Origin: a virus
DNA length: 33,317 nt
Direction: 5' to 3' (one strand)
IMG/VR virus record: IMGVR_UViG_3300025701_000032
Coordinates: 1-33,317 of that record
Shown here: positions 5,651 to 30,820 of the stretch, one piece after another
Position numbering within the stretch: the stretch's first letter is position 1
Layout of the letters: each line of letters opens with the position of its first letter
The notes under the pieces: generated by a model
Database searches by the model: none
Seen by the model: only the letters and a program-made list of their open reading frames with translations
Told to the model about the DNA's origin: nothing
Translations under genes and position numbers: made by a program

Positions 5651-7860
5651 TGTACGAGCAAACTTTATATAAGGTTATTGAACCTATAAAAATAAATGCT
5701 TTAAAACGTAACAATAAAGCTAAAAAGTGGAAGTACGGTTATAATAAAGAACACGATATAGTTGTTATTAGCCATACGGGTCAAATAGGAGAGATTTATG
5801 AGATCCAAAACTTAAAAGTAGCTTTACCGCCATCTCCTTCAAAATTGCTTAAAGGAAGCGATAAATGGGAGCAAGCAGAATATCCTAAAGAGTTACAAAG
5901 AATAAAAACTATATTTGACTGGAAAACACGATCAGTGGATTTTCAAAAGCAATGGGAGACTTATATAGATGAAGAATTTAAAAGAAGAGACGAAGGATAT
6001 TGGTTTTATAACAATGGTAATCCTACTTATATTACAGGTAGTCATTATATGTATTTACAGTGGAGTAAGATTGACGTAGGTGCTCCCGAGTTTAGAGAGT
6101 CTAACAGATTATTTTATATATTTTGGGAAGCTTGTAAAGCAGATGTAAGGTGTTATGGAATGTGTTATTTAAAAAATAGACGTTCTGGTTTTTCTTTTAT
6201 GGCTTCAGGTGAAACAGTTAATCAAGCGACTATTAGCTCAGATGCAAGGTTTGGTATATTATCAAAATCTGGTCCTGATGCTAAAAAAATGTTTACAGAT
6301 AAAGTAGTACCTATATCAATTAACTATCCTTTTTTCTTTAGGCCGATACAAGATGGTATGGATCGTCCTAAAACTGAATTAGCATATAGAGTGCCAGCTT
6401 CTAAATTAACAAGAAGAAGTATAACTGCTAATGATAGACCAGAAGAGCTAGATGGATTAGATACTACAATTGACTGGAAAAATACCGGAGATAACAGTTA
6501 TGATGGTGAAAAGCTAAGGTTATTAGTACATGATGAAAGTGGTAAATGGGAGAGACCTAATAATATACTTAACAACTGGCGAGTTACTAAAACGTGTTTA
6601 AGATTAGGTAGTAGAGTTATTGGTAAGTGTATGATGGGATCAACATCAAATGCTTTAGATAAAGGAGGTGAAAACTTTAAAAAATTATATAATGACTCAG
6701 ACGTTACAAAAAGAAACCGTAATGGACAGACTCGCTCTGGATTATATAGTTTGTTCATTCCTATGGAATGGAATTACGAGGGATTCATTGATTCTTATGG
6801 ATTACCGGTATTCGAAACTCCTAAAGAAGAAGTTAAAGGACCCTATGGAGATATTATAGAGCATGGTGTTATTGAGCATTGGGAAAATGAAGTCGACGGA
6901 TTAAAAGGAGATCAGGATGCATTAAATGAATACTATAGACAGTTCCCTCGTTCGGAAGAACACGCATTTAGAGATGAAACAAAAAACAGTTTATTTAACT
7001 TAACAAAAATATACGAGCAAATAGATTACAACGAAAACCTAGGCAACAGTTCTGTTATAACTACAGGAAGCTTTAGTTGGGAAAACGGAATAAGAGATAG
7101 TAAGGTAATGTTTACTCCTAATAAAAACGGTAGATTTAAAGTGTCTTGGGTTCCTTCTATTAGTTTACAAAATAGACAAACAATAAAAAATGGAGTTAAA
7201 TATCCTGGTAATGAACACGTTGGTGCATTTGGTTGTGATAGTTACGATATATCTGGTACTGTTGGTGGCAGGGGTTCTAAAGGAGCTTTGCACGGATTAA
7301 CAACGTTTAGCATGGAAGATGCTCCTGCCAATACGTTTTTTTTAGAATATATAGCTAGACCTCAAACAGCTGAAACATTTTTTGAAGATGTATTAATGGC
7401 ATTAGTATTTTACGGTATGCCTATACTTGCAGAGAACAACAAACCAAGACTTTTATATTATTTAAAACGTAGAGGATATAGAGGTTACTCTATGAATAGA
7501 CCAGATAAAATATGGAATAAATTATCTGTAGCTGAAAAAGAAATAGGTGGTATACCTAACTCGAGCGAAGATATAAAGCAAGCACACGCTGCTGCTATTG
7601 AAACATATATAAATACACACGTTGGTGTAATAAATGAAGGAGAATACGGATCTATGTACTTTTCTGAAACATTAAACGATTGGGCTAAATTTGATATAAA
7701 CAACAGAACAAAATACGATGCGGCTATTAGTTCTGGTTTAGCTATAATGGCTTGTAATAGACATTTATATAGACCTGTCGCAAAAATACAAAAACAACCT
7801 TTAAACATTAAGTTAGCGAGGTTTTCTAATAACGGATCAATTTCTAAAATAATAAAATAA
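5650..7860 (+). CDS. terL: Terminase large subunit (packaging ATPase and nuclease)
   Basis: TerL drives DNA into the procapsid and cuts the concatemer. The ATPase half shows a degenerate Walker A at about residues 175-182 (KNRRSGFS) and a Walker B at LRLLVHDE (D295, E296). The nuclease half has its first acidic residue in FGCDSYD (D530), and the last in KYDAAISSGLA (D690). The segment ENNKPRLLYYLKRRGY between them is typical of the nuclease region. At 736 residues it is longer than the common 450-600. Sequences such as GYWFYNNGNPTYITGSHYMY and SGLYSLFIPMEWN resemble, from memory, terminases of crAss-like and related Bacteroidota phages. Two bases separate it from the portal gene. Confidence 0.93.
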   Translation: MYEQTLYKVIEPIKINALKRNNKAKKWKYGYNKEHDIVVISHTGQIGEIYEIQNLKVALPPSPSKLLKGSDKWEQAEYPKELQRIKTIFDWKTRSVDFQKQWETYIDEEFKRRDEGYWFYNNGNPTYITGSHYMYLQWSKIDVGAPEFRESNRLFYIFWEACKADVRCYGMCYLKNRRSGFSFMASGETVNQATISSDARFGILSKSGPDAKKMFTDKVVPISINYPFFFRPIQDGMDRPKTELAYRVPASKLTRRSITANDRPEELDGLDTTIDWKNTGDNSYDGEKLRLLVHDESGKWERPNNILNNWRVTKTCLRLGSRVIGKCMMGSTSNALDKGGENFKKLYNDSDVTKRNRNGQTRSGLYSLFIPMEWNYEGFIDSYGLPVFETPKEEVKGPYGDIIEHGVIEHWENEVDGLKGDQDALNEYYRQFPRSEEHAFRDETKNSLFNLTKIYEQIDYNENLGNSSVITTGSFSWENGIRDSKVMFTPNKNGRFKVSWVPSISLQNRQTIKNGVKYPGNEHVGAFGCDSYDISGTVGGRGSKGALHGLTTFSMEDAPANTFFLEYIARPQTAETFFEDVLMALVFYGMPILAENNKPRLLYYLKRRGYRGYSMNRPDKIWNKLSVAEKEIGGIPNSSEDIKQAHAAAIETYINTHVGVINEGEYGSMYFSETLNDWAKFDINNRTKYDAAISSGLAIMACNRHLYRPVAKIQKQPLNIKLARFSNNGSISKIIK

Positions 7861-7862
7861 AT

Positions 7863-10289
7863 ATGGCTGAGTCAGTTGTAAAAAGTTTCTTCCCTAGTCA
7901 AGTGGCTAGCGACCAAGAGAAGTTAAGTGCCGAATACGGGCTTAAGGTCGGTAAAGCTATTCAAGACGAGTGGTTTAAAATGGACACAGGAACAACCCGC
8001 TATAAAAGTAATCAACATTCTTTTCATAGATTAAGATTATACGCAAGAGGTGAACAAGGTATACAAAAATACAAAGATGAATTATCTATTAACGGTGATT
8101 TATCTTATTTGAATTTAGACTGGAAGCCAGTACCTATAATTCCTAAGTTTGTAGATATTGTTGTTAACGGTATCTCTGAAAGATCATTTGATATAAAAGC
8201 ATATTCGCAAGATCCTTATGGTGTAGCTAAGAGAACAGATTACATGGAAGGGATATTAAGAGATATGCAAGCTAAAGAACTTAGCGAATTTGTAGAACAA
8301 AACTTTGGTATATCTGTATATGAAACTGACATACCTGAATTACCTGAAAGTAAAGAAGAACTAGAAGTACACATGCAGCTAACATATAAGCAAGGAGTTG
8401 AGTTAGCTCAAGAACAAGCAATACAAACTATATTTACTGGTAATAATTATGAATTAACTAAGAAGCGAGTTACTTATGATTTAGCTACTATAGGTATTGG
8501 AGCGGTTAAGAATGTATTTACAAAGTCTGAAGGCGTAAAAGTTGAATATGTAGATCCTGCTAACTTAGTGTATTCTTACACTGATTCGCCTTATTTTGAG
8601 GATATATATTATGTAGGTGAAATAAAAAGTATTCCTGCTAATGAACTTAAGAAGGAATTTCCTGATTTAGATGACGAAGAATTAGGTAACATTATAAAAC
8701 AATCTTATAAAAGTTCTGGTTTTTACGATAGGACTTTGACGAATTACGATCAATCAGATAGTAACACGGTACAAGTATTGTATTTTAACTATAAGACTTA
8801 CATGAATGAAGTTTATAAAGTTAAAGAAACTGCTACAGGTGCCAGTAAAATTATATTAAGAGATGATCAGTTTGATCCACCAGTTGAAATGCTAGAAGAG
8901 AAATATGGCAAAATGTCTAGATCTCTTGAAGTATTATATGAAGGTGTTTTAATATTAGGTACTAATAAATTACTTAAGTGGGAATTAGCAAAGAATATGA
9001 TGCGTCCTAAAAGTGATTATAGTAAAGTTAAAATGAATTACAGCATATGTGCTCCACGTATGTATAAAGGTAAAATTGAATCTTTAGTAAGCCGTATAAC
9101 AGGTTTTGCTGATATGATTCAATTAACTCATTTAAAGCTACAGCAAGTATTATCAAGAATGGTACCAGATGGAGTATATCTCGATGCTGATGGTTTAGCT
9201 GAAATAGATTTAGGTAATGGTACAAATTACAATCCGCAAGAAGCATTAAATATGTTTTTTCAAACAGGTTCTGTAATTGGTAGATCATTTACACAAGAAG
9301 GGGATATGAATCCTGGTAAAGTACCTATTCAAGAAATAACATCAGGTAGTGGTGGTAATAAAATACCTCAGCTTATTAATACGTATAACTATTACTTACA
9401 AATGATCCGTGATACAACCGGATTAAATGAAGCACGTGATGGCAGTACGCCTGATAGTAAAGCTTTAGTTGGTATACAAAAGATAGCAGCGGCTAATAGT
9501 AATACGGCAACTAGGCATATATTAAACGCAGGATTGTTTATAACAGCAGAAACTGCAGAATGTATAGCACTACGTATTTCAGATATACTAGAGTTTTCAC
9601 CAACAGCGGAAGCTTTTATACAAAAGATAGGTGGTCATAATGTAGCTACACTACAAGAAATGTCTGAGATGCATTTATATGACTTTGGTATATTCTTAGA
9701 ATTAACACCTGATGACGAAGAAAAACAAATGTTAGAGAATAACATACAAACAGCATTGTCAGCAGGACTTATTGATTTAGAAGATGCTATTGATATTAGA
9801 GAGGTTAAAAATATAAAGTTAGCTAATCAAGTATTAAAAATAAGACGTAAAAAGAAAGCTGAGCGTGACCAAATGAAGCAGCAACAGAATATACAAATGC
9901 AGTCACAAGCAAATGCTCAGGCTCAACAAGTAGCAGCTCAAGCGGAAGTTCAAAAGCAACAAGCTATTACAGAGCAGAAAATGCAATTAGAACAAATGAA
10001 ATCTCAGTTAGATTCTCGAAAGTTAATGCAAGAAGCAAACTTAAAGAAAGAATTAATGCAATTGGAGTTCCAAATGAACATGCAACTTAAAGGTGTAGAA
10101 GCTGAAGCTTATAAAACTAAGGAGAGTTTTAAAGAAGATAGAAAAGACGATAGATCAAAAATGGAAGCCTCACAACAAAGCCAATTAATTGATCAAAGAA
10201 AGAATAATTTACCGCCTAAAAGTTTTGAATCATCAGGTAATGACATAATTGGTGGTGGATTCGGTTTAGGTTCCTTTGAACCTAAGTAA
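7863..10289 (+). CDS. Portal protein with long Gln-rich coiled-coil tail
   Basis: An 808-residue protein directly after terL, the usual place for the portal, the dodecameric DNA gate at the capsid vertex. The N-terminal part contains LRLYARGEQGIQKYKDEL and LDWKPVPIIPKFVDIVVNG, a pattern I associate with large portals of marine and crAss-like phages. The middle carries the expected mixed clip/stem region with RDTTGLNEARDG. From about residue 655 to 770 the protein is Gln/Lys/Met-rich helix, and it ends in a Gly-rich tail. A long C-terminal helix would fit the internal barrel of P22-type portals. After the stop come four further in-frame stop codons. Confidence 0.85.
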   Translation: MAESVVKSFFPSQVASDQEKLSAEYGLKVGKAIQDEWFKMDTGTTRYKSNQHSFHRLRLYARGEQGIQKYKDELSINGDLSYLNLDWKPVPIIPKFVDIVVNGISERSFDIKAYSQDPYGVAKRTDYMEGILRDMQAKELSEFVEQNFGISVYETDIPELPESKEELEVHMQLTYKQGVELAQEQAIQTIFTGNNYELTKKRVTYDLATIGIGAVKNVFTKSEGVKVEYVDPANLVYSYTDSPYFEDIYYVGEIKSIPANELKKEFPDLDDEELGNIIKQSYKSSGFYDRTLTNYDQSDSNTVQVLYFNYKTYMNEVYKVKETATGASKIILRDDQFDPPVEMLEEKYGKMSRSLEVLYEGVLILGTNKLLKWELAKNMMRPKSDYSKVKMNYSICAPRMYKGKIESLVSRITGFADMIQLTHLKLQQVLSRMVPDGVYLDADGLAEIDLGNGTNYNPQEALNMFFQTGSVIGRSFTQEGDMNPGKVPIQEITSGSGGNKIPQLINTYNYYLQMIRDTTGLNEARDGSTPDSKALVGIQKIAAANSNTATRHILNAGLFITAETAECIALRISDILEFSPTAEAFIQKIGGHNVATLQEMSEMHLYDFGIFLELTPDDEEKQMLENNIQTALSAGLIDLEDAIDIREVKNIKLANQVLKIRRKKKAERDQMKQQQNIQMQSQANAQAQQVAAQAEVQKQQAITEQKMQLEQMKSQLDSRKLMQEANLKKELMQLEFQMNMQLKGVEAEAYKTKESFKEDRKDDRSKMEASQQSQLIDQRKNNLPPKSFESSGNDIIGGGFGLGSFEPK

Positions 10290-11525: not shown

Positions 11526-12959
11526 ATGGCATTAGCTGGAACTGGAGCAGAATTAAATCACTTGACTCCACGTCCTGTAAAAGGACTTTTTGGAGATAAC
11601 TATTTATCTCTTACTGATTTAGACTTTACACAACAATTTTTACCTGAGGTATACGAAAAAGAAGTTGAGCGTTATGGAAACAGAACGATTGGTGGATTCT
11701 TACGTATGGTAGGTGCTGAGATGCCTATGGCTTCTGATAGAGTTGTATGGAGTGAACAAGGAAGATTACACATTGCATTTGAAGACGCTGCTGTAGCAAA
11801 TTCATCTGCTGGACAAACAACTGTAACATTAGCTTCTGAAGCAGACGCAAACTTAGTAGCTGACGGTGCAACTATCGTTATTGCTTCTGGAGTTAACGTT
11901 GTAAAAGCAAGAGTTACTTCAAAATCTGGAGCAATATTAACTGTAGCACCTTACGGAGCTGCTGACTTAGACGGTTTAGGAACTGGATCTGATTTAACAG
12001 GTGTAAAAGTATTTATTTATGGATCTGAATACAAAAAAGGATCTGGAGACGTAGGAAATTCTGTAGATGCTAAATTCACAAAGTTTGAAAACAAACCAAT
12101 CATCTTACGTGACAAGTACAACGTAAATGGTTCTGATGTTGCTCAAATTGGATGGGTTGAAGTAACTACTGAGGCTGGAACTTCTGGATACTTATGGTAT
12201 TTAAAATCTGAGCACGAAGCTAGATTAAGATTTGAAGACCAATTAGAAATGGCAATGGTTGAAGCTGAGCTTGATGATACTGCTGGATCTTTAGGTGCTG
12301 CAGGTACTGCTGGATATAATGGTTCTGAAGGATTATTTGCTGCTATCGAGTCAAGAGGTATTGTATATAACGATGCTGATTTTGACGCTGTGGGCGGTTC
12401 TGCACCATTTGCTCCAACTGGATTAGGTGAGTTTGATAGTATCTTAGCTGAATTAGACAAGCAAGGTGCAATTGAAGAGAATATGATTTTCGTAAATAGA
12501 GCTACTGCTTTATCTATCGATAACATGTTAGCTTCTCAAAATGCTCCTTATGGTGGTGGTACTTCTTACGGTGTTTTTGAAAACAGCGAAGATATGGCAC
12601 TTAACTTAGGATTCAACGGATTCAGAAGAGGTTCTTATGACTTCTATAAAACTGACTGGAAATATTTAAATGACTCAACTACTCGTGGATTAGTAGGAGA
12701 CATCGAAGGAACTATTGTACCTGCTGGTGTATCTACTGTTTATGATGAGCAGTTAGGTAAGAACATTCAAAGACCATTCTTACACGTAAGATATAGAGCT
12801 TCTGAAGCAGATGATAGAAAAATGAAATCTTGGATCACTGGATCTGTAGGTGGAAACTATACAAGTGCTAACGATGAAATGAACGTTCACTTCTTATCTG
12901 AAAGATGTTTATGTGTACAAGGTGCAAACAACTTTGTATTATTAAAAGCTACTTCATAG
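11526..12959 (+). CDS. Major capsid protein (HK97-fold expected)
   Basis: The 477-residue protein follows the scaffold candidate and matches the size and style of major capsid proteins of Bacteroidota podoviruses. The N-terminal block LSLTDLDFTQQFLPEVYEKE is followed by SDRVVWSEQGRLHIAFED. Residues about 90-155 look like an inserted Gly/Ala/Val-rich beta domain. The C-terminal half contains GFNGFRRGSYDFYKTDWKYL and a conserved-looking FLHVRYRA. Codon choice looks more uniform than in neighbours (GGA for Gly, GCT for Ala, TCT for Ser), which fits very high expression. It stops at TAG followed at once by in-frame TAA. A perfect hairpin follows 20 bases later. Confidence 0.87.
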   Translation: MALAGTGAELNHLTPRPVKGLFGDNYLSLTDLDFTQQFLPEVYEKEVERYGNRTIGGFLRMVGAEMPMASDRVVWSEQGRLHIAFEDAAVANSSAGQTTVTLASEADANLVADGATIVIASGVNVVKARVTSKSGAILTVAPYGAADLDGLGTGSDLTGVKVFIYGSEYKKGSGDVGNSVDAKFTKFENKPIILRDKYNVNGSDVAQIGWVEVTTEAGTSGYLWYLKSEHEARLRFEDQLEMAMVEAELDDTAGSLGAAGTAGYNGSEGLFAAIESRGIVYNDADFDAVGGSAPFAPTGLGEFDSILAELDKQGAIEENMIFVNRATALSIDNMLASQNAPYGGGTSYGVFENSEDMALNLGFNGFRRGSYDFYKTDWKYLNDSTTRGLVGDIEGTIVPAGVSTVYDEQLGKNIQRPFLHVRYRASEADDRKMKSWITGSVGGNYTSANDEMNVHFLSERCLCVQGANNFVLLKATS

Positions 12960-15544: not shown

Positions 15545-18500
15545 ATGCCTGAAATTAAAAATCTATTTACGTCTGGGAAGATGAATAAAGACCTAGACGA
15601 AAGAATTATACCTAGTAATCAATATAGAGATGCTTTAAATATACAGGTTTCTAGTTCAGAAGGGTCTGATGTTGGTGCTATAGAAAATATATTAGGTAAC
15701 AAAGCTATAGTAAATAGTTCTTATAATACTGACACACAGACATATACACAATACAACGTACAGACACCTGGTTTTGATGTGTTAGGATTACCTAATGACG
15801 CTAAAACTATAGGGTCTATTCGATTTGATAAAACTGAATGTATATATTGGTTTGTAGCTTCAGACACTGTGAATGCTATTATTGAATACGACCAAAGCAT
15901 AGATGTAGTATCACCTATTATAGTTGATAAAAATAATGTTTTACAGTTTTCAAAAAATAAATTAATTACAGGTATTAATATCATAGAGGATTTATTATTC
16001 TTTACTGATGATAATAGCGAACCTAAATGTATTAATATAAAAAGATTTAGAGAAGCATCAGCTTTATCTACAAGCGGATTTACTAATCACACTGAAATAT
16101 ATGGTAGAGATTTTATAGAAGCAGATACAACTGTTATTAAAAAGTCTCCATTAACAGCCCCATTAATTGAAAAAAGAGACTCTAAAAGAACCGGAGCTGG
16201 GACTGGTATAAATACATTATCTGTATTTAAAAACTTTACAGAACTGATAGATGGAGGTCCTGAGTTTCAATCATTAGCTTCAGGTAGCTCTGTAAGTATT
16301 TCTTTTAATCAAGTACCTAATTATAAAGTAGGTGATATACTTTCTTTAAAAGCCGAATATGTAGACACTGATAGTAGTATAAACATTTTTGAGGTTGTTG
16401 TACAAATATCTGCAGGTACTTCTCAATTTTCAAACATTGTAGCAACTATATTAGCAATACCTTCTAACTTACCTAACGAATCTTTAGTATGGGAAACTGT
16501 TTTAGAAGAAGATGGGGCAATGTTTGAATATAAATTTCCACGATTTGCATATAGATGGAAATATAATGATGGTCAATACTCTACATTTTCTCCGTTTACA
16601 CAAGCTGTTTTTATACCTGGTAAATTTATATATAAATCTTCAGACGGTCATAATGAAGGGATGATTAATAATCTAAGATACATAAGAGTACACGGTTTAG
16701 AAACACCTCCTAAAGATGTAACTGAAATAGAAGTATTATATAAAGAAACAAATAACAATTTAGTCTACAGCGTTGATACTGTTCCTTTAGATACTCCTGA
16801 AATAGAAATTGAATCTGAACTTATTCATAAAGTTATAGAGGCTAATCAAATATTAAGACCTTGGGACAATGTGCCTTTAAAAGCAAAAGCTCAAGAAAGT
16901 GTTGGTAATAGAATAGTATATGGCAACTACTTACAAAACTTTAATGTAAATGAAGATTTAAATTTAGAATTTAGCACTAATAGTTTACCGCATACATCTC
17001 CTGGATCTGCTGAAGAATCTATAAAAACAAAAAGGACATACCAATTAGGTGTAGTTTGGAAAGATAAGTATGGTAGAGAAACACCTGTTTTTACAAGCCC
17101 TAACTCATCTTTGATATTAGATGGTTCATTTGCAAATAAAAAGAATGCATTAGCTGCTAAAATAACTTCTACAGCACCAAGTTTTGCAACACACTTTAAA
17201 TACTTTATAAAAGAAACATCGAATGAATATTATAATTTAGCTTTAGACAGATTTTATTTAGCTGAAGATGGTAATGTTTGGCTTTCTTTTCCTTCTTCTG
17301 AAAGAAATAAGGTGCAGGAAGACACATATTTGTTTTTAAAGAAGAAACACGATAGTGATGAATCAGTTACTTCAGATACTAAATATAAAATATTAGATAT
17401 AGCTAGTGAGGCTCCTTTATATATAAAAGAAAGCATTAAAACAATATCTAGTGCTGATGTAGAAGCTAGAGCAGCTTCTATTCCAGGTGTAGACCAGCTT
17501 ACGTTTGAATTTAACGGACCAACTTTTGATAGTAACCCTAATTTTAGAAATGATTTTAAGTCAGGAAACTTAATAAGTATAAAATCAGGAGGTAGCGTTA
17601 CAAGAAACTATGAAATAACATCAGGAGGGCCTACAGGGGTTGAAAATGTATATAGAGTTTCAATAAAAGAACCTCTTGAAGAAAGCTTTTTAGATTCTAT
17701 AGTCGAAGGTGGTGATTTTGAAATTTTTGTAAAAGAAAAAGTTGTTGATAATAAGCCTGAATTTATAGGTAGATTCTTTGTTAAGATAAATAGAGATGTT
17801 CATTTTAATAATAACATTATTAAATCATTCTCATCTTCTGAAACAAGATACGGTATATTAGACAGCGCTGATATTCCTAACACTATAGCTAATACTGGCC
17901 CTGGAGACGGAATTCAAGGGTTTGGTTTTACAGATACAAAAGCGCCTAATACTAGTAATTGGGTTAACGACATAAGAAAACCAATAGCTCAATCTAATTG
18001 GTTTGGTATTGGATGGGCTGGATATAGTGGTGGAGGAGATTCACCAATATCTACAGGTAGCGCAACGCATCCTATAATAGATAATCATTTATCGAATTTT
18101 AATACTTTAGTTAGATTTACTGATGCTAATGGAAACAAAAGTGAAGTATATACAGTTATAGACTCTACAGTAGACTATCACAGAAGAGGATGGGTAGGTA
18201 TTTTTGGAGGCGCAAGAAGATTAGGTAGTAACTCTAGGAAACAAGTAAAATGTATATTAGATAGAAACTTTGAAAGTGGTTTTGGTACAGTAACAGGTAT
18301 AGAAATTGTAGAAGAGTTAATATCTGATGATAATAATATATTATCTTCTAAGAACCCTGCAATATTTGAAACTGAGCCTAAGGAAAACATCGAGTTAGAT
18401 ATTTACTATGAGGCTTCAAATGCTATACCCGTAGCTTCTGCTAACACAACTAAAACATTAGATTGGTTCAACTGTTATTCATTTGGTAATGGCGTCGAGT

Positions 18501-19579
18501 CTGATCGTATTAGAGACGACTTTAACGCTACTAGAATTGGTAAAGGTGTTAAAGCCTCTGCTGTATTAGATGAACCTTATGCTGAGGAAAGAAGAGAGAG
18601 TGGTTTTATATTTTCTCAAATATTTAATTCTACATCAGGTATAAATAGGTTAAACCAGTTTATTCAAGCATTACCTATAACTAAAGATTTAAATCCAGCA
18701 TATGGGTCAATACAAAAGCTTCATGCAAGAAATACTGATTTAATTACTTTATGTGAAGACAAAGTTTTAAAAGTACTTGCTAATAAAGATGCATTATTTA
18801 ACGCTGATGGTAATACTAATGTTACTTCTAATAATAATGTTTTAGGTCAAGCAATGGCTTATGCTGGAGAATATGGTATATCTAAAAATCCTGAAAGTTT
18901 TGCACAGTATGGATTTAGAGTTTACTTTGCAGATAAAAATAGAGGTGTTATATTAAGATTATCTATAGACGGTTTAGAAGAAATATCTTCACAAGGTATG
19001 TCTGATTACTTTTCAGATAAGCTAGCTACTGAATCAGTTATTATAGGTAGTTACGACGATTACTCTAATTGTTATAATATATCATTTAGTGATGAAACGG
19101 TTTCGTATAAACAGGGATTAAAAGGATGGCCTACTAGAAAATCATTTGTACCAGAATCTGGTGTATCTTTAAACAATATTTATTATACATTTAAAGGAAG
19201 TCAAATATGGTCTCATAATAATGAAACTAGAAATAATTTTTATGGTACACAGTATAAATCTACTGTAAAGCTTATATTTAATATTAACTCTTCTAAAGTA
19301 AAAAACTTTAAAACAATTTCTTACGAAGGCGACTCTGGATGGACAACCCCTAATATAACGACTGATTTGCAAAGCGGTAAAGTATTATCTTACATATCTA
19401 AAGAGGGTATATACTACAACTTTATAAAAGGTGTTGAGAATACTTGGGACAATAATGCTCAAACAGGATCATTAGATACATCAGAATTTTCTACTCAAGG
19501 CATAGATGTACTACAAAGCATTACTGGTGATGTAACACCTACTCAATTTACTTTAACTATAAAAGAAAACAACGATTAA
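15545..19579 (+). CDS. Large tail stabilisation (P22 gp10-like / muzzle-like) protein
   Basis: A 1344-residue protein starting with KNLFTSGKMNKDLDERIIP, then QYRDALNIQVSSSEGSDVGA. This N-terminus is the hallmark, as I know it, of the 'stabilisation protein' of marine podovirus-type phages and of crAss-like tail muzzle proteins. P22 gp10, the packaged-DNA stabiliser, is the classical relative. Repeated strand patterns (about residues 10-110, 330-450 and 1040-1230) suggest a beta-propeller core with inserted beta domains. It would close the distal tail end and hold DNA in until infection. It follows the ring candidates by 2 bases and precedes the next gene by 1. Confidence 0.78.
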   Translation: MPEIKNLFTSGKMNKDLDERIIPSNQYRDALNIQVSSSEGSDVGAIENILGNKAIVNSSYNTDTQTYTQYNVQTPGFDVLGLPNDAKTIGSIRFDKTECIYWFVASDTVNAIIEYDQSIDVVSPIIVDKNNVLQFSKNKLITGINIIEDLLFFTDDNSEPKCINIKRFREASALSTSGFTNHTEIYGRDFIEADTTVIKKSPLTAPLIEKRDSKRTGAGTGINTLSVFKNFTELIDGGPEFQSLASGSSVSISFNQVPNYKVGDILSLKAEYVDTDSSINIFEVVVQISAGTSQFSNIVATILAIPSNLPNESLVWETVLEEDGAMFEYKFPRFAYRWKYNDGQYSTFSPFTQAVFIPGKFIYKSSDGHNEGMINNLRYIRVHGLETPPKDVTEIEVLYKETNNNLVYSVDTVPLDTPEIEIESELIHKVIEANQILRPWDNVPLKAKAQESVGNRIVYGNYLQNFNVNEDLNLEFSTNSLPHTSPGSAEESIKTKRTYQLGVVWKDKYGRETPVFTSPNSSLILDGSFANKKNALAAKITSTAPSFATHFKYFIKETSNEYYNLALDRFYLAEDGNVWLSFPSSERNKVQEDTYLFLKKKHDSDESVTSDTKYKILDIASEAPLYIKESIKTISSADVEARAASIPGVDQLTFEFNGPTFDSNPNFRNDFKSGNLISIKSGGSVTRNYEITSGGPTGVENVYRVSIKEPLEESFLDSIVEGGDFEIFVKEKVVDNKPEFIGRFFVKINRDVHFNNNIIKSFSSSETRYGILDSADIPNTIANTGPGDGIQGFGFTDTKAPNTSNWVNDIRKPIAQSNWFGIGWAGYSGGGDSPISTGSATHPIIDNHLSNFNTLVRFTDANGNKSEVYTVIDSTVDYHRRGWVGIFGGARRLGSNSRKQVKCILDRNFESGFGTVTGIEIVEELISDDNNILSSKNPAIFETEPKENIELDIYYEASNAIPVASANTTKTLDWFNCYSFGNGVESDRIRDDFNATRIGKGVKASAVLDEPYAEERRESGFIFSQIFNSTSGINRLNQFIQALPITKDLNPAYGSIQKLHARNTDLITLCEDKVLKVLANKDALFNADGNTNVTSNNNVLGQAMAYAGEYGISKNPESFAQYGFRVYFADKNRGVILRLSIDGLEEISSQGMSDYFSDKLATESVIIGSYDDYSNCYNISFSDETVSYKQGLKGWPTRKSFVPESGVSLNNIYYTFKGSQIWSHNNETRNNFYGTQYKSTVKLIFNINSSKVKNFKTISYEGDSGWTTPNITTDLQSGKVLSYISKEGIYYNFIKGVENTWDNNAQTGSLDTSEFSTQGIDVLQSITGDVTPTQFTLTIKENND

Positions 19580-23437: not shown

Positions 23438-26400
23438 ATGGAAGAATTAGAATTAATTGTTCAAAAAATGATGAACGCGGGTGAGTCTGAAGAAACGATT
23501 GCAGAAGTAATAAAAACTTATGAATCAAAAAAAGTAAAAGGCTCGACAGTAACAGCTGCAAGTGTGGAGCCGGTTCAAGATGCAGCAAGCCTAGAAAATG
23601 GGGAATTAGCATCGGAAGATTCTTCATTGGAGCAATCAAATAACCCATTAGATTTAGCTATAGAACAAATAGATATAGAAAACAAAAATATTGAGCCTAC
23701 TGAATATTATAAAGAAAAATCTGCTGAGTTAAAAAGAAATATAGCTGAAACTGAGAAACAATTAAAAGCTTATGAATCTAAAGGTGGTCAAATAGATCCT
23801 AGAGATGCTAAAGTGCTACAGGATTATAAAAATAAGTTAGCAGCCTTAGATAAAGATAAGTTAGGCATAAAAGAAAGACTATCCAACGCAGGTGCAAATA
23901 TACTGCCCGGCCTTGAAGCAGCGTGGGAATCAACTAAAGCTTTTAGTGTAGATTGGTTGTCAAACGTAGCAGGTGATGATGCTACCGACTTCTTACTTGG
24001 AGAAACCGATGGTGGCCCTGTAGTTTTTGTTGATCCAGAAAATGGAGAGGAAATAAGCTATAAAGAAAACCCAGAAAGATTTAAACAGCTTAATACAGCT
24101 CAAATGAAAGGTGAATCTGTAGAAGCTATTTACCAAAAAAATAAAAAACCAGTAGGTCAAGTAGCTGATGAGTACCTTATTAATCAATTTAAGAAAATAA
24201 AAAGCTTAAACGAATCTATAAAAGAGGTCGGTAGTATTACAGGAGGTTTATCTAAAGGTGATTTTGAAGAGACTGTTGGTGGTGTAATTAATGCTGTTTC
24301 AAACTTATTAACGACAGCGATACCAGCTGCTTTAACCAGAGGAGCCTCATTATTTCCTCAAATTGCTGCTCCTATGTATTCAGAATACAATTCTGAAAAA
24401 GCTAAAAACAAATATCCTGAATCAGATGATCCTTTAAGAGACCTAGTAGAAAACAAAGAAACAAACACAACTGTGCCTTTAGTTTTAGGGGGAATATCTA
24501 TGGGGTTAGAATACATTGGGTTAAAAGGAATTTCTAAACAAATTTTAAAAAATACAGGAAAGTTTTCTCCATTAGCAAGTCTTATATTAACTAATAGTAA
24601 GGAAGGCTTAACTGAGGTTGGTCAATACGGAGTTGAAACTGTAAATAGTAGTTTAGCAAAAGGTAAAGACACGCAAGAAGCTTTTATAGATGGTTTAAAA
24701 GCTATGGCTTCTCCTGAAGCTTTAGAAAATTTTGCCCAAGGTTTTGTAGGGTCTGGAATTATATCTGCTCCTAGCACAATAACAAAAGCCATAAATTTAG
24801 AAAAAAATTCTTTAAATGTAATAAATACTAATATAAATAAATTAGGATCTTTACAACTACAGAAAAAAACTACAAAAAGCAAAGCTCTTAAACAAGCTAT
24901 TGATTTAGAAATAGCTGAAACAGAAAAGGCTCTGAAAAAACATTTTACAGAAAATTACAAAATATCAAAGTCTTTTAGTAAAGGACAACAAAAAGAAATA
25001 ATATCTATAATAAATAAAAAAGAAAAAAACACCAATTTAATAAATGATCTTAAATCTTCTTTTGAAGCTGGCGAAATAAATAAAAACCAATATGGAGGAG
25101 CTAAGTCTGCTTTAATTAAAAAAAATAATATCTTATCTGCGGAAATAGTTAAAATAAAAGAAGCTGTTGACTTAGAGAAACTTGACACTGAAATTAACAA
25201 ATCTTTAGATAGAACTAAAAATATTTTAAAACAATTAGATGTTAGTGCAGAACTAAATGTTGTTGAAGCTACAGATAAAGCTACTGCAAATGAGCAAATT
25301 GTAGATATACTTAAAAAAGCAGGTAAAACTCAAGAGCAAATAAATACTAGACTTAAAGATTATGAGTCTGGTTTTGGTTTTTTTGTTACGGATTCTAATG
25401 ATTCGAATAAAGAGTATTTGGTATTAAACAAAGACAAAATGCGAGAAGTAGGTATTACTACCACCGCTCAGCACGAATTATTACATAAAATACTTAAAAA
25501 TAGATTAGCTAACGATCCTGTCGTATCAAAACAAATGTATGAAAGTTTGCAATCTGAAGTAGCTAAGCTTGATAAAGACGTTGCAAAAGTATTTAATGGT
25601 GTTATGGATAAGTACATGTCCGATGTAGAAAACCCTAATATAAACTATAATTTAAATAACTACTATGAAGAATATTTTGTTCAATTTTCTGAATTTGCAG
25701 CTAACAATTTAGACAAAATTAACAACAATGCATTTACCCGTATAAAAGATTTTATTAGAAGAATTTTTAATAAAATAGGTTTTACTAATATTGATTTTGA
25801 TGAGCAAGGAGCTATAAACTTTATTAAAGATTATAATAGAGAATTTAAAAAAGGTAAATTATCAAAGGCTACAATAAAATTAGCAAATCAAAACATAAAA
25901 GCTACAAAGAATAAAGAAGTAGCTGACGTATTTAGTAAAAGTATAGATATTGATGCCAATACTAAAAGCGATATTTTTACAAAAGCAAATAAAGTATACG
26001 AGGAATATAAAAGTGATCCTTCAAGCGCTGGTCTAATGGTAGGTTTAGAATTTGAGCCTATTGTTAAGAAAATGCTTAATAAGTATAGAGACTTGTTTGG
26101 TATGGATGAATATACATTAGACTTAATTGCTAATGATGTAATGATCGAAACACGTCCAGGTTATAATGGTATACCAGCATTGGTAAGAACTTGGGATCCA
26201 GCTAAAGGTGCTTCTTTAACTTCACATATATATGGTAATCTACCTAACAGAATATTAGGTATTATACAAAATAAATACCCTGATTTAGGTAAAACAGTCG
26301 AGTTAGTACAAGAAAAAGCTGATAAATTAACTACAGACGAAGGTTTTGGGGGTACTGGAGAGGTTAATGATGGATTTGTAGATACTTCTTCACATGAAAA

Positions 26401-29400
26401 TTACACTAGGGTTAGCCGTAAGAAAGCTGAGGTTACAATGGGTATGCCTCCTGAGTATGCTAAAAGATCTGAAGAAATAGGCGAAAGAATATTAATGTCT
26501 ACAAAACTTCAAGATTTAGACGCTAGGATTGTAGGTACTATAAAAGATTCTGAAGGTAGAACATTGAGAGTAGCTATGCTAGAAAGTAATAAAGCTAGAG
26601 TATACTTACCAGATGGAACTACTGAAATAATAAAAGCTAGAACTCCTAAAGTTGTAGAACAAAAATACGGTGCTGCAGACAGATCATTCAGAAAGATAGC
26701 TAGCACTAAAGCTCAAATGATTGAAGAGGCAAAAGCTTATTTAATTCCAGAAATGGAAAAAACCGCTGGAGGATTAAAAGATAATTATGAGCCCACACTT
26801 CAATATACTAAATTTATAGATAAGACATTTAGTTTATATAAAGATTATTTAAGTCAATCAGCAATTAATAAAAGATTTGCAGATTTTAAAGAGCCTGTAA
26901 TAGATCCTAAAACAGGTAAGCAAGCTCGTGAAAAAACAGCTCAAGGTAATAAAATATTTACAAAGAGATCATTAGCATTGGCTGAGTGGAGAAAATACTT
27001 TATAGGTGACGGAACTAAACGTATTGATGGTCGTAGAAGATCTTTACTAGAGGCTTTAGCCACAGAACAAGGCTTTGATAAAGTTATGGAGGTTCTTGGT
27101 AAAGAAGATATGCGAAAGCAGATTGAGTCTAGACAAGAAGAATTAAGTAATGATCTTATAGATAACTATGTAGCTGTTATAGCTAAGTCATTAGATAGAA
27201 ACAACCCTACTGTTGCTTTCTCTAAATTTACAAAAGAACTTGCTGCTTTAATTAATAAAACCCAAACAGAAGTTGAAAATGAACTTGTGTTATGGCATTC
27301 TCAAGGAAAAACATTTAGTGATTTACCTGAAGATAGCGAATACATAGAAGCTATATATCAACTTGTAAACAAAGAATTTAAAGGAAAAATAATAGATGAG
27401 ATTTCTAATAAAAATAACTTTACAAAAACAACAATAGACCACCTTAAGCTTTTAAATAGTGGAGATCCTGATATTTGGGGTGATATGAAGCCTATTAATA
27501 AACAAAACAAAGAAGAGCTCAAAGAAACAGAAAAAGCAACTAATGCGATAATTAGTTTTTTACCTTCACAGTTTAAGGATTTATCTATAAAAGGAGCAAA
27601 GGATCCTAAAATTAGTAACCGTTTATTATCAACTTTATTCGGGGGGGATTCAAATAAAAGTGAAGTTATTGATGATTTAAAATTTAATACAGATGTATTT
27701 CAAACTAAGCATGGTGATAAAGTTGCTGAAAGGTTTTCAGAATTAAATAGTGATGCTTATAAGAGTTATTTAAATAAAATAGATAAGTTTTTTGAAATAG
27801 CGAAAGAGTTAAAAACAAATAAAAAAGGATCTATTGGAAGTATTGACTACTATTATAGAAAAATAGCAGAAAAAATAGATAAAGAAAGAAAACGTAAAGG
27901 ATCGACTAATGAGAGTATAGTAAAAGTAATTAACTCTGATTCTAAACTTCTAAATAATTTTATTAAAGAAACAGAAATTAGAGAATTATTTTTTGATATT
28001 ATATTAGACGCTATTGAAATTGCAAAAGCGGATATTGAATCCAATCCGAGCGGAAATGTGGAAGCATTCATTAAATATGGAGTTGGAACATTTTTCTTAA
28101 ATCAAGACAGGAGAGGATTTAGAGATCTATCTTCTAAGATGCTATTTGACATTACACCCTACAAAGACTCTAGATTAGATCAACATTTAAAAGCTAAAGC
28201 GGTAGCTGCTGGAGAATTTATACATCACATCGCTAAAGGGACATTAACTAGTGAATTAAGAAAAGATTTAATAACTTCTTACGAAAGTTCTCTGGGATCT
28301 AAAAAGGCTCAAGATAGAGCTGATATAGCCTTAGGGGCTGCTTACGCTGCTGATAGATATGTAAAAATTGGAGCAGAGGTAGTTAGGCTTAATAAAAAGG
28401 GTAAAATTATTAATAAAAAAGATATTGGCATTGATTATTTAAAAAACACATACAATGTTAAGACTAAAGAGACTATGTATGGTCAGTTGATGAAGCAAAA
28501 GTTTGATGATATAGTTAGAGAAATAAAGCCTAGTATTGTTGTTGACCAAAAAGTAAAAAAACATAACGATAAAATATTTAATACAGAATTTAATAGCCCT
28601 GCAGAAGTAGCGCAAGTAGCTAACTTAAACAATAGTACTATTAAACAAGCTAAAGAATCTAATTTAGGGGAAGTAGTGGCTAATATGATCGAACGTAAAA
28701 CAGGTATATCTGCTAAAGCGCCATTATCTGCTTCAAGAGCCGCTAATATAGGTAGAACAAAAGGTAAATTTAATTTTTATTTACCACCTAATGCAGAAGA
28801 CTTTGCTGGATTGTTATATAAACTTTACGGAAAAGGTAAGCAAGGAGATAAAGATATGGCTTTTATGAAAGAGCATTTATTAGATCCTTACAACGCAGGT
28901 GAACAAGCTATTAGTACATATAAACAAAACTTAGCAGAAGATTATAAATCTATAGAAAAACAGTTAGGCGAAATAGAAGGTACTGTATCTAAAGAAACTA
29001 AAGCAACTTTAGATGAATTAGGATTTAATGCGGATCAAGCTGTTCGTGTAGCTTTATGGAACCAAGCTGGGTTTGAAATACCAGGTATACAAAACATAGA
29101 GGCTGCTAAACTTAGAATAGCTGTTGTTAAAGATAAAAGATTAAAAGCTTATGCCGATGGTATTCGAACTATTGTAAAAGGTAATTTATTCGAGCCTTCT
29201 GAACAATGGTTTTCAAGTAATATACGATACGATTTATTTACACATGCTACTGAAGGTGTTAGACCTAAATTTTTAGAGCAATGGGATACTAATGTAAAAG
29301 AAATATTTAATAAAGAAAACTTAATTAAATTAGAAGCTGCATACGGAAAGAATTATGTTAATAATTTAAATGATATGATCGCTCGTATGAAGACTGGTAA

Positions 29401-30820
29401 AAGTAGAGGTTCTAACTTAGGCAAAGAAGCTAATGCTGCTTTAGACTATCTTAACGGATCTATTGGTGTTATTATGTGGATGAATACACGTTCAGCTATG
29501 CTACAAACCATATCCGCTGTAAACTATATTAACTGGAGTGATAATAACCCTGTACGTATAGCACAAACGCTTGCAAAGCCTAAAGAGTTTGCTTCTACTT
29601 TTATGGAAATATTTAATTCAGATTTTTTAAAGCAACGTAGATCAGGTTTAGAAATTAACGTAGAAGAAGCTGAGATAGCAAGAGCTGTAGAAAAAAGTAA
29701 AGGTAAGGCATCTAAAATATTCAATGCATTGATTAAAGCTGGTTTTGCACCAACTCAAATTGCAGATAGTTTTGCGATTGCTATTGGAGGTACTCCTTTA
29801 TTAATGAATAGAACTAAAACATATCAAAGAAAAGGTTTTGAATATGCTGAAGCTCGTGAGAAAGCATTTAATGATTTAAGAGAAATATCAGAAGAAAACC
29901 AACAGTCATCGAGACAAGATAAAGTGTCTAATATACAGGTAGGTGTAATGGGTAGATTAGTATTCGCATTTAACAACACACCTTTTCAAATGACTCGTTT
30001 ACAGAAAAAAGCTGCCTTAGACTTAGTAAACAGGAGAGGTGATTGGAAGACTAACATTTCTAAACTAGCTTATTATTCTACAATACAATCTGTAATATTT
30101 TATGCTTTACAACAAGGAGCTGCTTTAACATTATTCGGAAAAGACGACGAAGATTTAACTGAAGAAGAAAAAGAAAATATAGCTAAATATAAAGAGAAAA
30201 AAACTATAGGCTTAGCTAATAGTGTAGTCGATGGATTTTTAAGCGGATCTGGTTTACCCGGTAAAATACTTGTAACAGGTAAAAATACTTTAGCTAAATA
30301 TTTAGAAGAAGAGGAGAAAGGCTATAAAGCTGATTATGGAGATGTATTAAATGAGGCTTTTTCTATATCTCCTCCTATATCAAGTAAAACTAAAAAAGCA
30401 TATTCAGCATTTAATACTTTTAGGTATGGATCTACTAAGAAAGGTAAAGCAAAGTATGACCAATCTAATAAACTTAGTCCTTTACATCCAATGAATGTTG
30501 CTAGAGCTAAAATGTTTTCAGCTGTAACTAATATACCTTTAGACAGAGTAGTAACTAAAATAGATAATTTAAACGAAGCTGTTACAAATACAGACATTGA
30601 ACCTCAAATTAAATTAGCGTTAGCACTAGGATGGGGTAAATGGTCATTAGGTTTTTATGATGGATTATATGGTGAAGACGCAAAAGATGTTAAAGATAAA
30701 AAATCATCTTCTACTAGAAAACAAAAAAATAGAGAAAAAGCTTTAGATCTTTCAAAAAAATCCTTTAAATATAGAGACTCAGTAAGATTAGCTAATTATA
30801 GAAAAAAAAATAAAAAATAA
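23438..30820 (+). CDS. Giant virion protein with HELLH zinc-peptidase motif
   Basis: At 2460 residues this single frame covers 22% of the window. The N-terminal helical pair (ELIVQKMMNAGESEETIAEV) recurs, as I recall, at the start of giant proteins in marine phages. A hydrophobic stretch lies near 282-312. HELLH at 679-683 is the HExxH zinc site; NYYEEYFVQFSE at about 741-752 supplies a glutamate (E744 or E745) as likely third ligand. A WDPAKGASLTSHIYGNLP segment lies at about 919-936. The C-terminal region (about 2016-2240) has NTRSAMLQTISAVNYINW, QQSSRQDKV and a membrane-compatible helix near 2211-2235. Such proteins are generally packaged and delivered into the cell. A peptidase role, in virion maturation or against a host target, is inferred. 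Its stop overlaps the next start (TAATG). Confidence 0.8.
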   Translation: MEELELIVQKMMNAGESEETIAEVIKTYESKKVKGSTVTAASVEPVQDAASLENGELASEDSSLEQSNNPLDLAIEQIDIENKNIEPTEYYKEKSAELKRNIAETEKQLKAYESKGGQIDPRDAKVLQDYKNKLAALDKDKLGIKERLSNAGANILPGLEAAWESTKAFSVDWLSNVAGDDATDFLLGETDGGPVVFVDPENGEEISYKENPERFKQLNTAQMKGESVEAIYQKNKKPVGQVADEYLINQFKKIKSLNESIKEVGSITGGLSKGDFEETVGGVINAVSNLLTTAIPAALTRGASLFPQIAAPMYSEYNSEKAKNKYPESDDPLRDLVENKETNTTVPLVLGGISMGLEYIGLKGISKQILKNTGKFSPLASLILTNSKEGLTEVGQYGVETVNSSLAKGKDTQEAFIDGLKAMASPEALENFAQGFVGSGIISAPSTITKAINLEKNSLNVINTNINKLGSLQLQKKTTKSKALKQAIDLEIAETEKALKKHFTENYKISKSFSKGQQKEIISIINKKEKNTNLINDLKSSFEAGEINKNQYGGAKSALIKKNNILSAEIVKIKEAVDLEKLDTEINKSLDRTKNILKQLDVSAELNVVEATDKATANEQIVDILKKAGKTQEQINTRLKDYESGFGFFVTDSNDSNKEYLVLNKDKMREVGITTTAQHELLHKILKNRLANDPVVSKQMYESLQSEVAKLDKDVAKVFNGVMDKYMSDVENPNINYNLNNYYEEYFVQFSEFAANNLDKINNNAFTRIKDFIRRIFNKIGFTNIDFDEQGAINFIKDYNREFKKGKLSKATIKLANQNIKATKNKEVADVFSKSIDIDANTKSDIFTKANKVYEEYKSDPSSAGLMVGLEFEPIVKKMLNKYRDLFGMDEYTLDLIANDVMIETRPGYNGIPALVRTWDPAKGASLTSHIYGNLPNRILGIIQNKYPDLGKTVELVQEKADKLTTDEGFGGTGEVNDGFVDTSSHENYTRVSRKKAEVTMGMPPEYAKRSEEIGERILMSTKLQDLDARIVGTIKDSEGRTLRVAMLESNKARVYLPDGTTEIIKARTPKVVEQKYGAADRSFRKIASTKAQMIEEAKAYLIPEMEKTAGGLKDNYEPTLQYTKFIDKTFSLYKDYLSQSAINKRFADFKEPVIDPKTGKQAREKTAQGNKIFTKRSLALAEWRKYFIGDGTKRIDGRRRSLLEALATEQGFDKVMEVLGKEDMRKQIESRQEELSNDLIDNYVAVIAKSLDRNNPTVAFSKFTKELAALINKTQTEVENELVLWHSQGKTFSDLPEDSEYIEAIYQLVNKEFKGKIIDEISNKNNFTKTTIDHLKLLNSGDPDIWGDMKPINKQNKEELKETEKATNAIISFLPSQFKDLSIKGAKDPKISNRLLSTLFGGDSNKSEVIDDLKFNTDVFQTKHGDKVAERFSELNSDAYKSYLNKIDKFFEIAKELKTNKKGSIGSIDYYYRKIAEKIDKERKRKGSTNESIVKVINSDSKLLNNFIKETEIRELFFDIILDAIEIAKADIESNPSGNVEAFIKYGVGTFFLNQDRRGFRDLSSKMLFDITPYKDSRLDQHLKAKAVAAGEFIHHIAKGTLTSELRKDLITSYESSLGSKKAQDRADIALGAAYAADRYVKIGAEVVRLNKKGKIINKKDIGIDYLKNTYNVKTKETMYGQLMKQKFDDIVREIKPSIVVDQKVKKHNDKIFNTEFNSPAEVAQVANLNNSTIKQAKESNLGEVVANMIERKTGISAKAPLSASRAANIGRTKGKFNFYLPPNAEDFAGLLYKLYGKGKQGDKDMAFMKEHLLDPYNAGEQAISTYKQNLAEDYKSIEKQLGEIEGTVSKETKATLDELGFNADQAVRVALWNQAGFEIPGIQNIEAAKLRIAVVKDKRLKAYADGIRTIVKGNLFEPSEQWFSSNIRYDLFTHATEGVRPKFLEQWDTNVKEIFNKENLIKLEAAYGKNYVNNLNDMIARMKTGKSRGSNLGKEANAALDYLNGSIGVIMWMNTRSAMLQTISAVNYINWSDNNPVRIAQTLAKPKEFASTFMEIFNSDFLKQRRSGLEINVEEAEIARAVEKSKGKASKIFNALIKAGFAPTQIADSFAIAIGGTPLLMNRTKTYQRKGFEYAEAREKAFNDLREISEENQQSSRQDKVSNIQVGVMGRLVFAFNNTPFQMTRLQKKAALDLVNRRGDWKTNISKLAYYSTIQSVIFYALQQGAALTLFGKDDEDLTEEEKENIAKYKEKKTIGLANSVVDGFLSGSGLPGKILVTGKNTLAKYLEEEEKGYKADYGDVLNEAFSISPPISSKTKKAYSAFNTFRYGSTKKGKAKYDQSNKLSPLHPMNVARAKMFSAVTNIPLDRVVTKIDNLNEAVTNTDIEPQIKLALALGWGKWSLGFYDGLYGEDAKDVKDKKSSSTRKQKNREKALDLSKKSFKYRDSVRLANYRKKNKK

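What the first reader, a model, noticed from the sequence alone, without database searches (positions are those of the whole stretch)
25472..25700. Zinc-peptidase site embedded in a 2460-residue virion protein
HELLH (679-683) is followed 61-62 residues later by NYYEEYFVQFSE, the spacing and context expected for a gluzincin third ligand. A peptidase carried inside the particle could mature other virion proteins or act in the host after injection, for instance on defence or transcription proteins.
Basis: partly seen in the sequence, partly recalled or inferred. Interest (0 to 1): 0.55.

Follow-up and report, generated by a model that had tools for sequence, protein, structure and literature searches.

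The report
Zinc protease inside giant phage protein
A giant protein that a phage with crAss-type tail genes probably packs in its particle contains a well-conserved domain that looks like a zinc protease, a kind already known from other phages' injected proteins, whose target is still unknown.

Summary
The 2460-aa ORF (23438-30820) has one HELLH at 679-683 (25472-25486). Of 201 distinct phage loci found through the same C-terminal block, 176 have exactly one HExxH (composition predicts 0.95 in all; permuted motifs occur in 1-4 of 201). The third ligand is E745, not E744: E680, H683 and E745 are invariant in 188 alignable domains. AlphaFold gives a confident zincin-like topology; for a compact member the first 22 VIA rows are zincin-type folds (lethal and edema factor, PPEPs, Certhrax, IrrE), at modest Z 4.2-7.0. 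Profiles link the domain to zincins of crAss001 gp47, seen in virions by mass spectrometry, and N4 virion RNA polymerase. So it is a member of a described kind: zincins in phage 'polyvalent' proteins (PMC5512222). Most likely it is an active protease, delivered with the DNA, that first cuts its own polypeptide or co-delivered cargo; a host target is the main rival. Activity, zinc, packaging and substrate are not shown. Unexpected: one clade (9 loci) has Glu at the first metal-ligand position with the rest of the site kept.

The parts
23438..30820 (+). ORF of 2460 aa, giant protein next to the structural gene cluster, probable ejected virion cargo (polyvalent-like protein)
   Evidence: ORF; no Pfam match above cut-off, no PHROG match at E 0.001, no phage-record match; homologues in viral contigs; virion location inferred from gene order
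25238..25804 (+). zincin-type metallopeptidase domain (residues 601-789)
   Evidence: models; structural matches; alignments
25412..25429 (+). edge strand EYLVLN (659-664), consensus I-x-I-N, before the active-site helix
   Evidence: column conservation; predicted strand
25472..25486 (+). HELLH, residues 679-683: H679 and H683 metal ligands, E680 general base (inferred roles)
   Evidence: conservation
25670..25672 (+). E745, third metal ligand (inferred), on a separate helix
   Evidence: 188 of 188 alignable domains; helix 156-173 of the model
25691..25693 (+). E752, second conserved acidic position (D or E in 72 of 75 domains)
28661..30670 (+). conserved C-terminal block (670 aa) used to find the homologues
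   Evidence: 47-53% identity to four relatives; scans

Best explanation
A zincin-fold metallopeptidase domain with a complete site (H679, H683 and E745 as metal ligands, E680 as general base) sits in a giant protein that is probably packaged in the particle of a phage with crAss-type tail genes and ejected ahead of or with the DNA. Most likely it is catalytically active and, once the chain has passed the tail and refolded in the host, cuts the giant polypeptide in cis (or co-ejected copies and cargo in trans), separating modules from the ejection part. Supported here: sequence, conservation, predicted fold, family. Inferred: zinc binding, proteolysis, packaging. Weakest step: that the substrate is the protein itself or its cargo rather than a host protein. 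My own estimates: zincin fold and metal site 0.95, peptidase activity 0.8, packaged in the virion 0.85, self or cargo processing as the main role 0.45.
For: 176 of 201 loci keep exactly one HExxH; in the 164 loci where an anchor of the C-terminal block was also found, HExxH lies N-terminal of it in 164 (1106-2229 residues apart, median 1469). Mean column identity of 62 domains is 16%, with only H, E, H and the third E invariant. Compact member L024: pLDDT 89.8; VIA matches lethal factor Z 7.0, catalytic lethal factor domain (4pkw 597-775) Z 6.4, C. difficile Zmp1 (PPEP-1) Z 6.9, IrrE Z 4.8. Profile-profile: crAss001 gp47-type zincin p 8.1e-6, probability 84%; N4 virion RNA polymerase zincin p 2.7e-5, probability 74%; control with the family's own C-terminal block p 0.26. 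Packaging: gene order, and gp47 of crAss001, which carries HEAFH, was found in virions by mass spectrometry (PMC10172136, passages). Processing: the zincin domain is in 188 of 201 loci, whereas a HAD-type motif pair is in 113 of 201 and kinase-type Pfam matches (AAA_33, Zeta_toxin) in 4 of 15 each; HExxH precedes the HAD motif in 100 of 101 loci that have both.
Against: No direct evidence of cleavage, zinc or packaging for this protein. N4 virion RNA polymerase, with a related domain, is packaged unprocessed (PMC5512222, passage). Four loci (L060, L071, L108 of one lineage by their C-terminal block, and L210) have no detectable domain, and 11 loci have Glu or Gln at the first ligand position, so a canonical site is not indispensable. 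The window protein itself has no other recognised enzymatic module to release. Structural evidence is modest: Foldseek found no PDB match under E 0.1 for either model; for the window's own model the VIA list is mixed after five zincin-type rows, best Z 6.2. The two known comparison domains (gp47 type and N4 type) match each other only at probability 8%, p 0.0043.
Confidence: 0.45

Rival explanations
1. The domain is an injected effector protease that cuts a specific host protein (for example a defence, transcription or envelope protein) early in infection.
For: The best structural neighbours include proteases with defined protein substrates (lethal factor, PPEP). The polyvalent-protein paper proposes this as an alternative. 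The domain diverges to 16% mean column identity while keeping its active site, as one might expect for varied targets.
Against: HExxH is kept in 176 of 201 loci, one copy each, and the domain is commoner than the other recognised enzymatic modules; effectors against a single host target are usually swapped or lost (general expectation, not tested).
Confidence: 0.3
2. The domain is a structural or packaging module whose proteolytic activity matters little: a zincin scaffold used for encapsidation, with metal mainly stabilising it.
For: The region with the zincin of N4 virion RNA polymerase is needed for encapsidation although the protein stays unprocessed (PMC5512222, passage). First-ligand variants persist: E in 9 and Q in 2 of 188.
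Against: The general base E680 is kept in 188 of 188, also in the variants, which is hard to explain without chemistry. The domain can be missing altogether.
Confidence: 0.12
3. The protease acts during assembly, cutting head or tail proteins before DNA packaging (maturation protease).
For: The gene lies in the structural cluster.
Against: Known phage maturation proteases are usually separate genes near the capsid gene (recalled); here the domain is fused into a giant, probably low-copy cargo protein (inference).
Confidence: 0.07
4. HELLH is a chance pentapeptide in an unrelated helical protein.
For: Searches with the window protein give no Pfam match above cut-off and no PHROG match, and a profile of 62 domains finds no zincin in PDB sequences.
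Against: Conservation, controls and fold.
Confidence: 0.01

Closest known systems
Zincin-like MPTase domains of phage polyvalent proteins (Iyer et al. 2017, PMC5512222, passages read)
   Same: HExxH on one helix, Glu on a later helix, three strands with an N-terminal helix, variable insert between the two helices, fused into giant phage proteins; some relatives also carry kinase-type and LPD14 domains
   Different: No family model covers this set: at most 4 of 62 domains match any one Pfam family shown at E 0.1, 2 of 62 any PHROG at E 0.01, 1 of 62 any NCBIfam model shown; one sub-clade has EExxH, a variant not mentioned in the passages I read and with no occurrence of the word EEXXH in that text
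Bacteroides phage crAss001 gp47 and relatives (Crassvirales)
   Same: Giant protein encoded shortly after gp44, which I take for the muzzle gene (recalled), with a zincin motif (HEAFH, then EExxAE); profile p 8.1e-6; gp47 detected in virions (PMC10172136, passages)
   Different: Domain near the C-terminus of gp47, H-to-E spacing about 36 residues, no whole-protein match to the window protein in the phage collection
N4 virion RNA polymerase C1 domain (Schitoviridae)
   Same: HELVH zincin inside an ejected giant protein; profile p 2.7e-5 over the strands and HExxH, the third ligand not covered
   Different: Fused to a T7-like RNA polymerase in N4; no RNA-polymerase family match in the window protein
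Lethal factor/PPEP-type zincins
   Same: Best structural neighbours of the compact member (Z 5.0-7.0); H-to-E spacing 50 in L024 against 49 and 43 (the latter two recalled)
   Different: Sequence link weak: the ATLF Pfam model is hit by 2 of 62 members, best E 0.0093; different biological setting

Membership tests
Zincin metallopeptidase superfamily | HExxH in an alpha helix | tested here: met
   Residues 679-683, helix 93-104 of the model; 176 of 201 loci
Zincin metallopeptidase superfamily | Third protein ligand on a later helix (Glu for gluzincin-like sites) | tested here: met
   E745 in 188 of 188 alignable domains, helix 156-173 of the model; metal contact itself not measured
Zincin metallopeptidase superfamily | Zincin fold: helix, three-stranded sheet, active-site helix, ligand helix | tested here: met
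   Topology of models; first 22 VIA rows of the compact member are zincin-type folds, Z 4.2-7.0; window model mixed list, best Z 6.2
Zincin metallopeptidase superfamily | One Zn bound and peptidase activity | not testable with these tools
   No coordinates and no biochemistry
Phage polyvalent proteins | Several unrelated enzymatic or LPD domains in one giant polypeptide | tested here: inconclusive
   Relatives: AAA_33 4 of 15, Zeta_toxin 4 of 15, LPD14 2 of 15, HAD-type motif pair 113 of 201; window protein: no other domain recognised
Phage polyvalent proteins | Packaged and delivered into the host with the DNA | not testable with these tools
   Gene order only
Crassvirales-type virion module | Crassvirus muzzle protein encoded beside the gene | tested here: met
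   Pfam crAss_MUZ 4.3e-08 and crAss_MUZ_C 2e-09, both above cut-off
Crassvirales-type virion module | The virus belongs to the order Crassvirales | tested here: inconclusive
   Nearest named records (terminase 87, muzzle 87) are Flavobacterium, Cellulophaga, Tenacibaculum and Maribacter phages and a spring phage; the taxonomy lines of phi38:1 (Pervagoviridae) and elemo do not name Crassvirales; no tree was made
N4-type virion RNA polymerase | T7-like RNA polymerase in the same polypeptide | tested here: not met
   No RNA-polymerase family in the window protein or among the families listed for 15 full-length members
Lethal factor/PPEP peptidase family | Sequence profile match above cut-off | tested here: inconclusive
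   ATLF hit by 2 of 62 members, best E 0.0093; structure matches Z up to 7.0

The most novel reading that the evidence does not exclude
Within this phage family one clade has rebuilt the zincin metal site: its first metal-ligand position is Glu (EExxH ... E), while the catalytic Glu, the second His and the third Glu are kept in 9 of 9 loci, which fall into three groups only 31-39% identical to each other. Phages with HExxH and a C-terminal block 94-97% identical to that of an EExxH member exist (L187, L188 against L120), so the domain seems to be exchanged as a unit. If functional, this would be a naturally selected carboxylate-rich zincin active site (another metal or other chemistry) in an injected phage protein.
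Probability: 0.25. Interest if true: 0.7.

Novelty: new member of a known kind. Interest (0 to 1): 0.45.

Why it matters
It shows that a protease-type domain is the commonest recognised catalytic module in 201 sampled members of a large family of giant phage proteins (one scan alone found at least 552 relatives of its C-terminal block), adds a likely zincin in crAss001 gp47, and makes an old question testable: do injected phage proteases process the giant protein itself or attack the host? The natural variants (EExxH, QExxH, HExxxH, domain-less) are a ready-made comparison set.

Tried and rejected
Rejected: chance motif (controls); E744 as ligand (not conserved); fusion to an RNA polymerase (no match).

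Led nowhere or weak: Pfam, PHROGs and NCBIfam with 62 domains gave only scattered hits: Peptidase_M78 in 4 of 62 (best E 0.015), ATLF in 2, DUF6782 putative metallopeptidase in 2, SprT-like and Peptidase_M91 in 1 each, WD_0702 putative metalloprotease in 1 (E 0.00034), mixed with many unrelated families of similar strength. PDB sequence profile: no zincin. Foldseek alone gave no PDB match below E 0.001, the best rows being unrelated proteins at 0.12 and 0.6; only the VIA second look at Foldseek's own candidates ranked zincins first. For the window's own model the VIA rows after the first five mix zincins (PPEP-1, 1oz9, selecase, ColH) with unrelated helical proteins. BFVD: best E 2.1e-03, an uncharacterized protein of an uncultured virus. 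A sigma-factor-like reading of residues about 860-960 was a resemblance from memory; one single-sequence PDB search did not support it. An idea that the zincin is lost where the gene is split was dropped: L040 is split and keeps it; the apparent split of L071 may be an assembly error. Hydrophobicity scan for membrane segments in the window protein: none above threshold. Literature searches: (searches list only part of what matched). The words zincin, protease and peptidase do not occur in the main texts of PMC10172136 and PMC7886860. The library lacks most subscription journals, and Yutin 2018 and Drobysheva 2020 were not held, so I do not claim that the crAss-type zincin is unpublished.

Rows dropped or set aside before counting: L001 (the window itself); L006 (near copy of L005); L008, L010, L011, L012 (same contigs as L002, L004, L003, L005); L111 and L156 (same contigs as L047, L052); 22 of the 64 new loci (contigs already read). 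Each scan kept the best 80 of 289, 552 and 418 relatives, so the 201 are a sample near the queries used. Loci were not dereplicated by identity, so related phages count several times (for example L191 and L216 have identical domains). Of 201: 176 HExxH, 9 EExxH, 2 QExxH, 1 HExxxH, 4 without the domain (L060, L071, L108, L210), 1 with the motif in the adjacent upstream ORF (L040), 1 with broken ORFs (L148), 7 cut by the contig end (L019, L032, L051, L122, L124, L145, L233). The invariance of H, E and H within the 176 is by construction. The third-Glu alignment could in principle be forced by the aligner; against this stand the acidic residue at -1 (58 of 75) and at +7 (72 of 75). The position equivalents were chosen by gene order only; no sequence homology to the window protein was found for them.

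Full report
What was checked. The window is a 33,317-base linear virus record. Its plus-strand gene cluster reads as a structural module: terminase large subunit (5650-7860, phrog_6681, 2.3e-171), portal (7863-10289, phrog_6547, 7.8e-150), a 477-aa virion structural protein that I take for the capsid protein (11526-12959, inference), and a crassvirus-type muzzle protein (15545-19579, Pfam crAss_MUZ 4.3e-08, crAss_MUZ_C 2e-09). The 87 phage records that match the terminase are of Flavobacterium, Cellulophaga, Tenacibaculum and Maribacter phages and one Manatee Spring phage; the taxonomy lines I saw for phi38:1 (Pervagoviridae) and elemo do not name Crassvirales, so I call the virus crAss-related, not a crassvirus. 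It has no Pfam match above cut-off, no PHROG match and no match in the phage collection.

The motif. HELLH is at 679-683 and NYYEEYFVQFSE at 741-752, as stated. From composition 0.007 HExxH would be expected in this ORF.

Relatives. I read 201 distinct loci: 82, 77 (after removing two repeats) and 42. Exactly one HExxH is present in 176. Controls: permuted motifs 1-4 of 201, expected total 0.95, other plus-strand ORFs of at least 200 aa 1 of 554. Of the 25 others, 7 are cut by a contig end, 1 has the motif in the adjacent upstream ORF, 1 has broken reading frames, 4 have no detectable domain, and 12 have a homologous domain with a changed site: EExxH in 9, QExxH in 2, HExxxH in 1.

Third ligand. 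In 75 domains a Glu aligns at E745 in all, with an acidic residue before it in 58 and seven residues later in 72; the spacing from the first His varies from 49 to 89. In 140 domains E745 is invariant and 744 is not. In all 188 alignable domains, variants included, E680, H683 and E745 are invariant, while the first ligand is H in 177, E in 9 and Q in 2. The H, E and H invariance of the 176 is by construction; the third Glu and the variants are not.

Fold. AlphaFold with 62 domains gave mean pLDDT 81.7 and pTM 0.80 for window residues 584-838, and 89.8 and 0.80 for the compact member L024. Order of elements in L024: helix, strand, helices, two strands, active-site helix and, after two further helices, the ligand helix. 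Foldseek alone gave no PDB match under E 0.001 for either model. VIA-align on Foldseek's candidates: for L024 the first 22 rows are lethal factor (rows over its N-terminal and its catalytic domain, Z up to 7.0), an edema factor entry, Certhrax, PPEP-1, -2 and -3 and IrrE/PprI (Z down to 4.2); collagenases G, H and T follow at Z 3.7-4.0, after one hydrolase of unknown type (3cmn, Z 4.0). For the window's own model the first five rows are lethal factor, edema factor and PPEP-1 (Z 6.2-4.0) and the list is mixed below. That these entries are zincin folds is partly recalled knowledge. The tool warns that Z under 8 can reflect a common arrangement; the uniformity of the L024 list and its cover of most of the model are why I trust it. 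Atom distances could not be measured.

Family. hhalign links the domain to the zincin of crAss001 gp47 and relatives (probability 84%, p 8.1e-6, HExxH and a later Glu aligned) and to the N4 virion RNA polymerase zincin (probability 74%, p 2.7e-5, strands and HExxH aligned); the family's own C-terminal block as control gave p 0.26. The gp47 type and the N4 type match each other only weakly (probability 8%, p 0.0043). crAss001 gp47 (HEAFH at 2157) was detected in virions by mass spectrometry (PMC10172136, passages). Position equivalents in other phages, chosen by gene order: elemo gp18 has one HExxH, the Manatee Spring phage protein has two, phi38:1 gp101 (1691 aa) has none. Zincin domains are the commonest domain of phage and plasmid polyvalent proteins, with self-processing or host attack as proposed roles, and HExxxH variants are described there (PMC5512222, passages). 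The 2025 N4 preprint notes the HExxH domain; the passages I saw report no activity for it (PMC12633501).

Other modules. In 15 full-length members Pfam finds AAA_33 in 4, Zeta_toxin in 4 and LPD14 in 2; the window protein has none. A HAD-type DFDxT/TAR motif pair is present in 113 of 201, and HExxH precedes it in 100 of 101 loci that have both. So the zincin (188 of 201) is the commonest recognised catalytic module, though the window protein itself shows no other.

Mechanism. Supported here: a conserved zincin-type fold and metal site in a giant protein encoded in the structural region. From established knowledge: such sites usually bind zinc and cleave peptide bonds. Inferred: packaging and ejection. 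Committed guess: after ejection it cuts its own chain or co-ejected cargo (0.45), with a host target as main rival (0.3). Against the guess: N4 polymerase is packaged intact, some loci lack the domain, and the first ligand can change. On checking, I set the overall confidence to 0.45 instead of 0.5, because it cannot exceed that of its weakest step.

Verdict. A real and well-supported protease-type domain, a new member of a known kind. The unexpected part is the EExxH clade, monophyletic on a FastTree of the domains (9 of 9, support 0.925), in three groups 31-39% identical to each other, which keeps the catalytic Glu and the other two ligands.

Noticed in passing
L117, L118, L120, L127, L137, L191, L197, L202, L216 (zincin domain): Nine loci form one clade in which the first metal-ligand position of HExxH is Glu; catalytic Glu, second His and third Glu are kept. 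L007 and L154 have Gln there; L153 has HExxxH.
   Followed up: partly
L187, L188 against L120: C-terminal blocks 97% and 94% identical to that of L120, but HExxH zincins where L120 has EExxH: the domain seems to be exchanged between phages as a unit.
   Followed up: partly
L060, L071, L108, L210: Members of the giant-protein family without HExxH and without a detectable zincin domain; L060, L071 and L108 share a C-terminal block at 92-98% identity.
   Followed up: partly
L088 6120-13145 (crAss001 gp47): The MS-detected crAss001 cargo protein gp47 has a zincin-like HEAFH...EExxAE motif near its C-terminus, kept in 8 of 8 aligned sequences (gp47 and seven relatives); the fetched record names it only a putative RNA-polymerase subunit.
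   Followed up: partly
L092 741-12320 (MW202828, minus strand): The 3859-aa position equivalent in the Manatee Spring phage has two HExxH motifs, at 1615 and 2500.
   Followed up: no
113 of 201 loci, among them L002 and L004: HAD-type motif pair (DFDxT, TAR) in the giant protein, absent from the window protein; PHROG polynucleotide-kinase matches in L002 and L004.
   Followed up: partly
window 25949-26401: Segment with a pattern that reminds me of sigma-factor region 2 (WDPAKGASLTSHIYG), with similar stretches in L002, L004, L007 and L009; not supported by one PDB sequence search.
   Followed up: partly
window 4828-5430: GroES-like co-chaperonin gene (phrog_13932, 5.3e-18) shortly upstream of the terminase gene; a GroES gene also precedes the terminase gene in phi38:1 and elemo.
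   Followed up: no
window 3-3965: Tail-fibre ORF open at the 5' end of the record, with a Peptidase_S74 chaperone domain near its C-terminus.
   Followed up: no
L040 2-6553 and 6481-11304: Giant gene split into two overlapping ORFs, zincin motif in the first and the conserved block in the second.
   Followed up: partly
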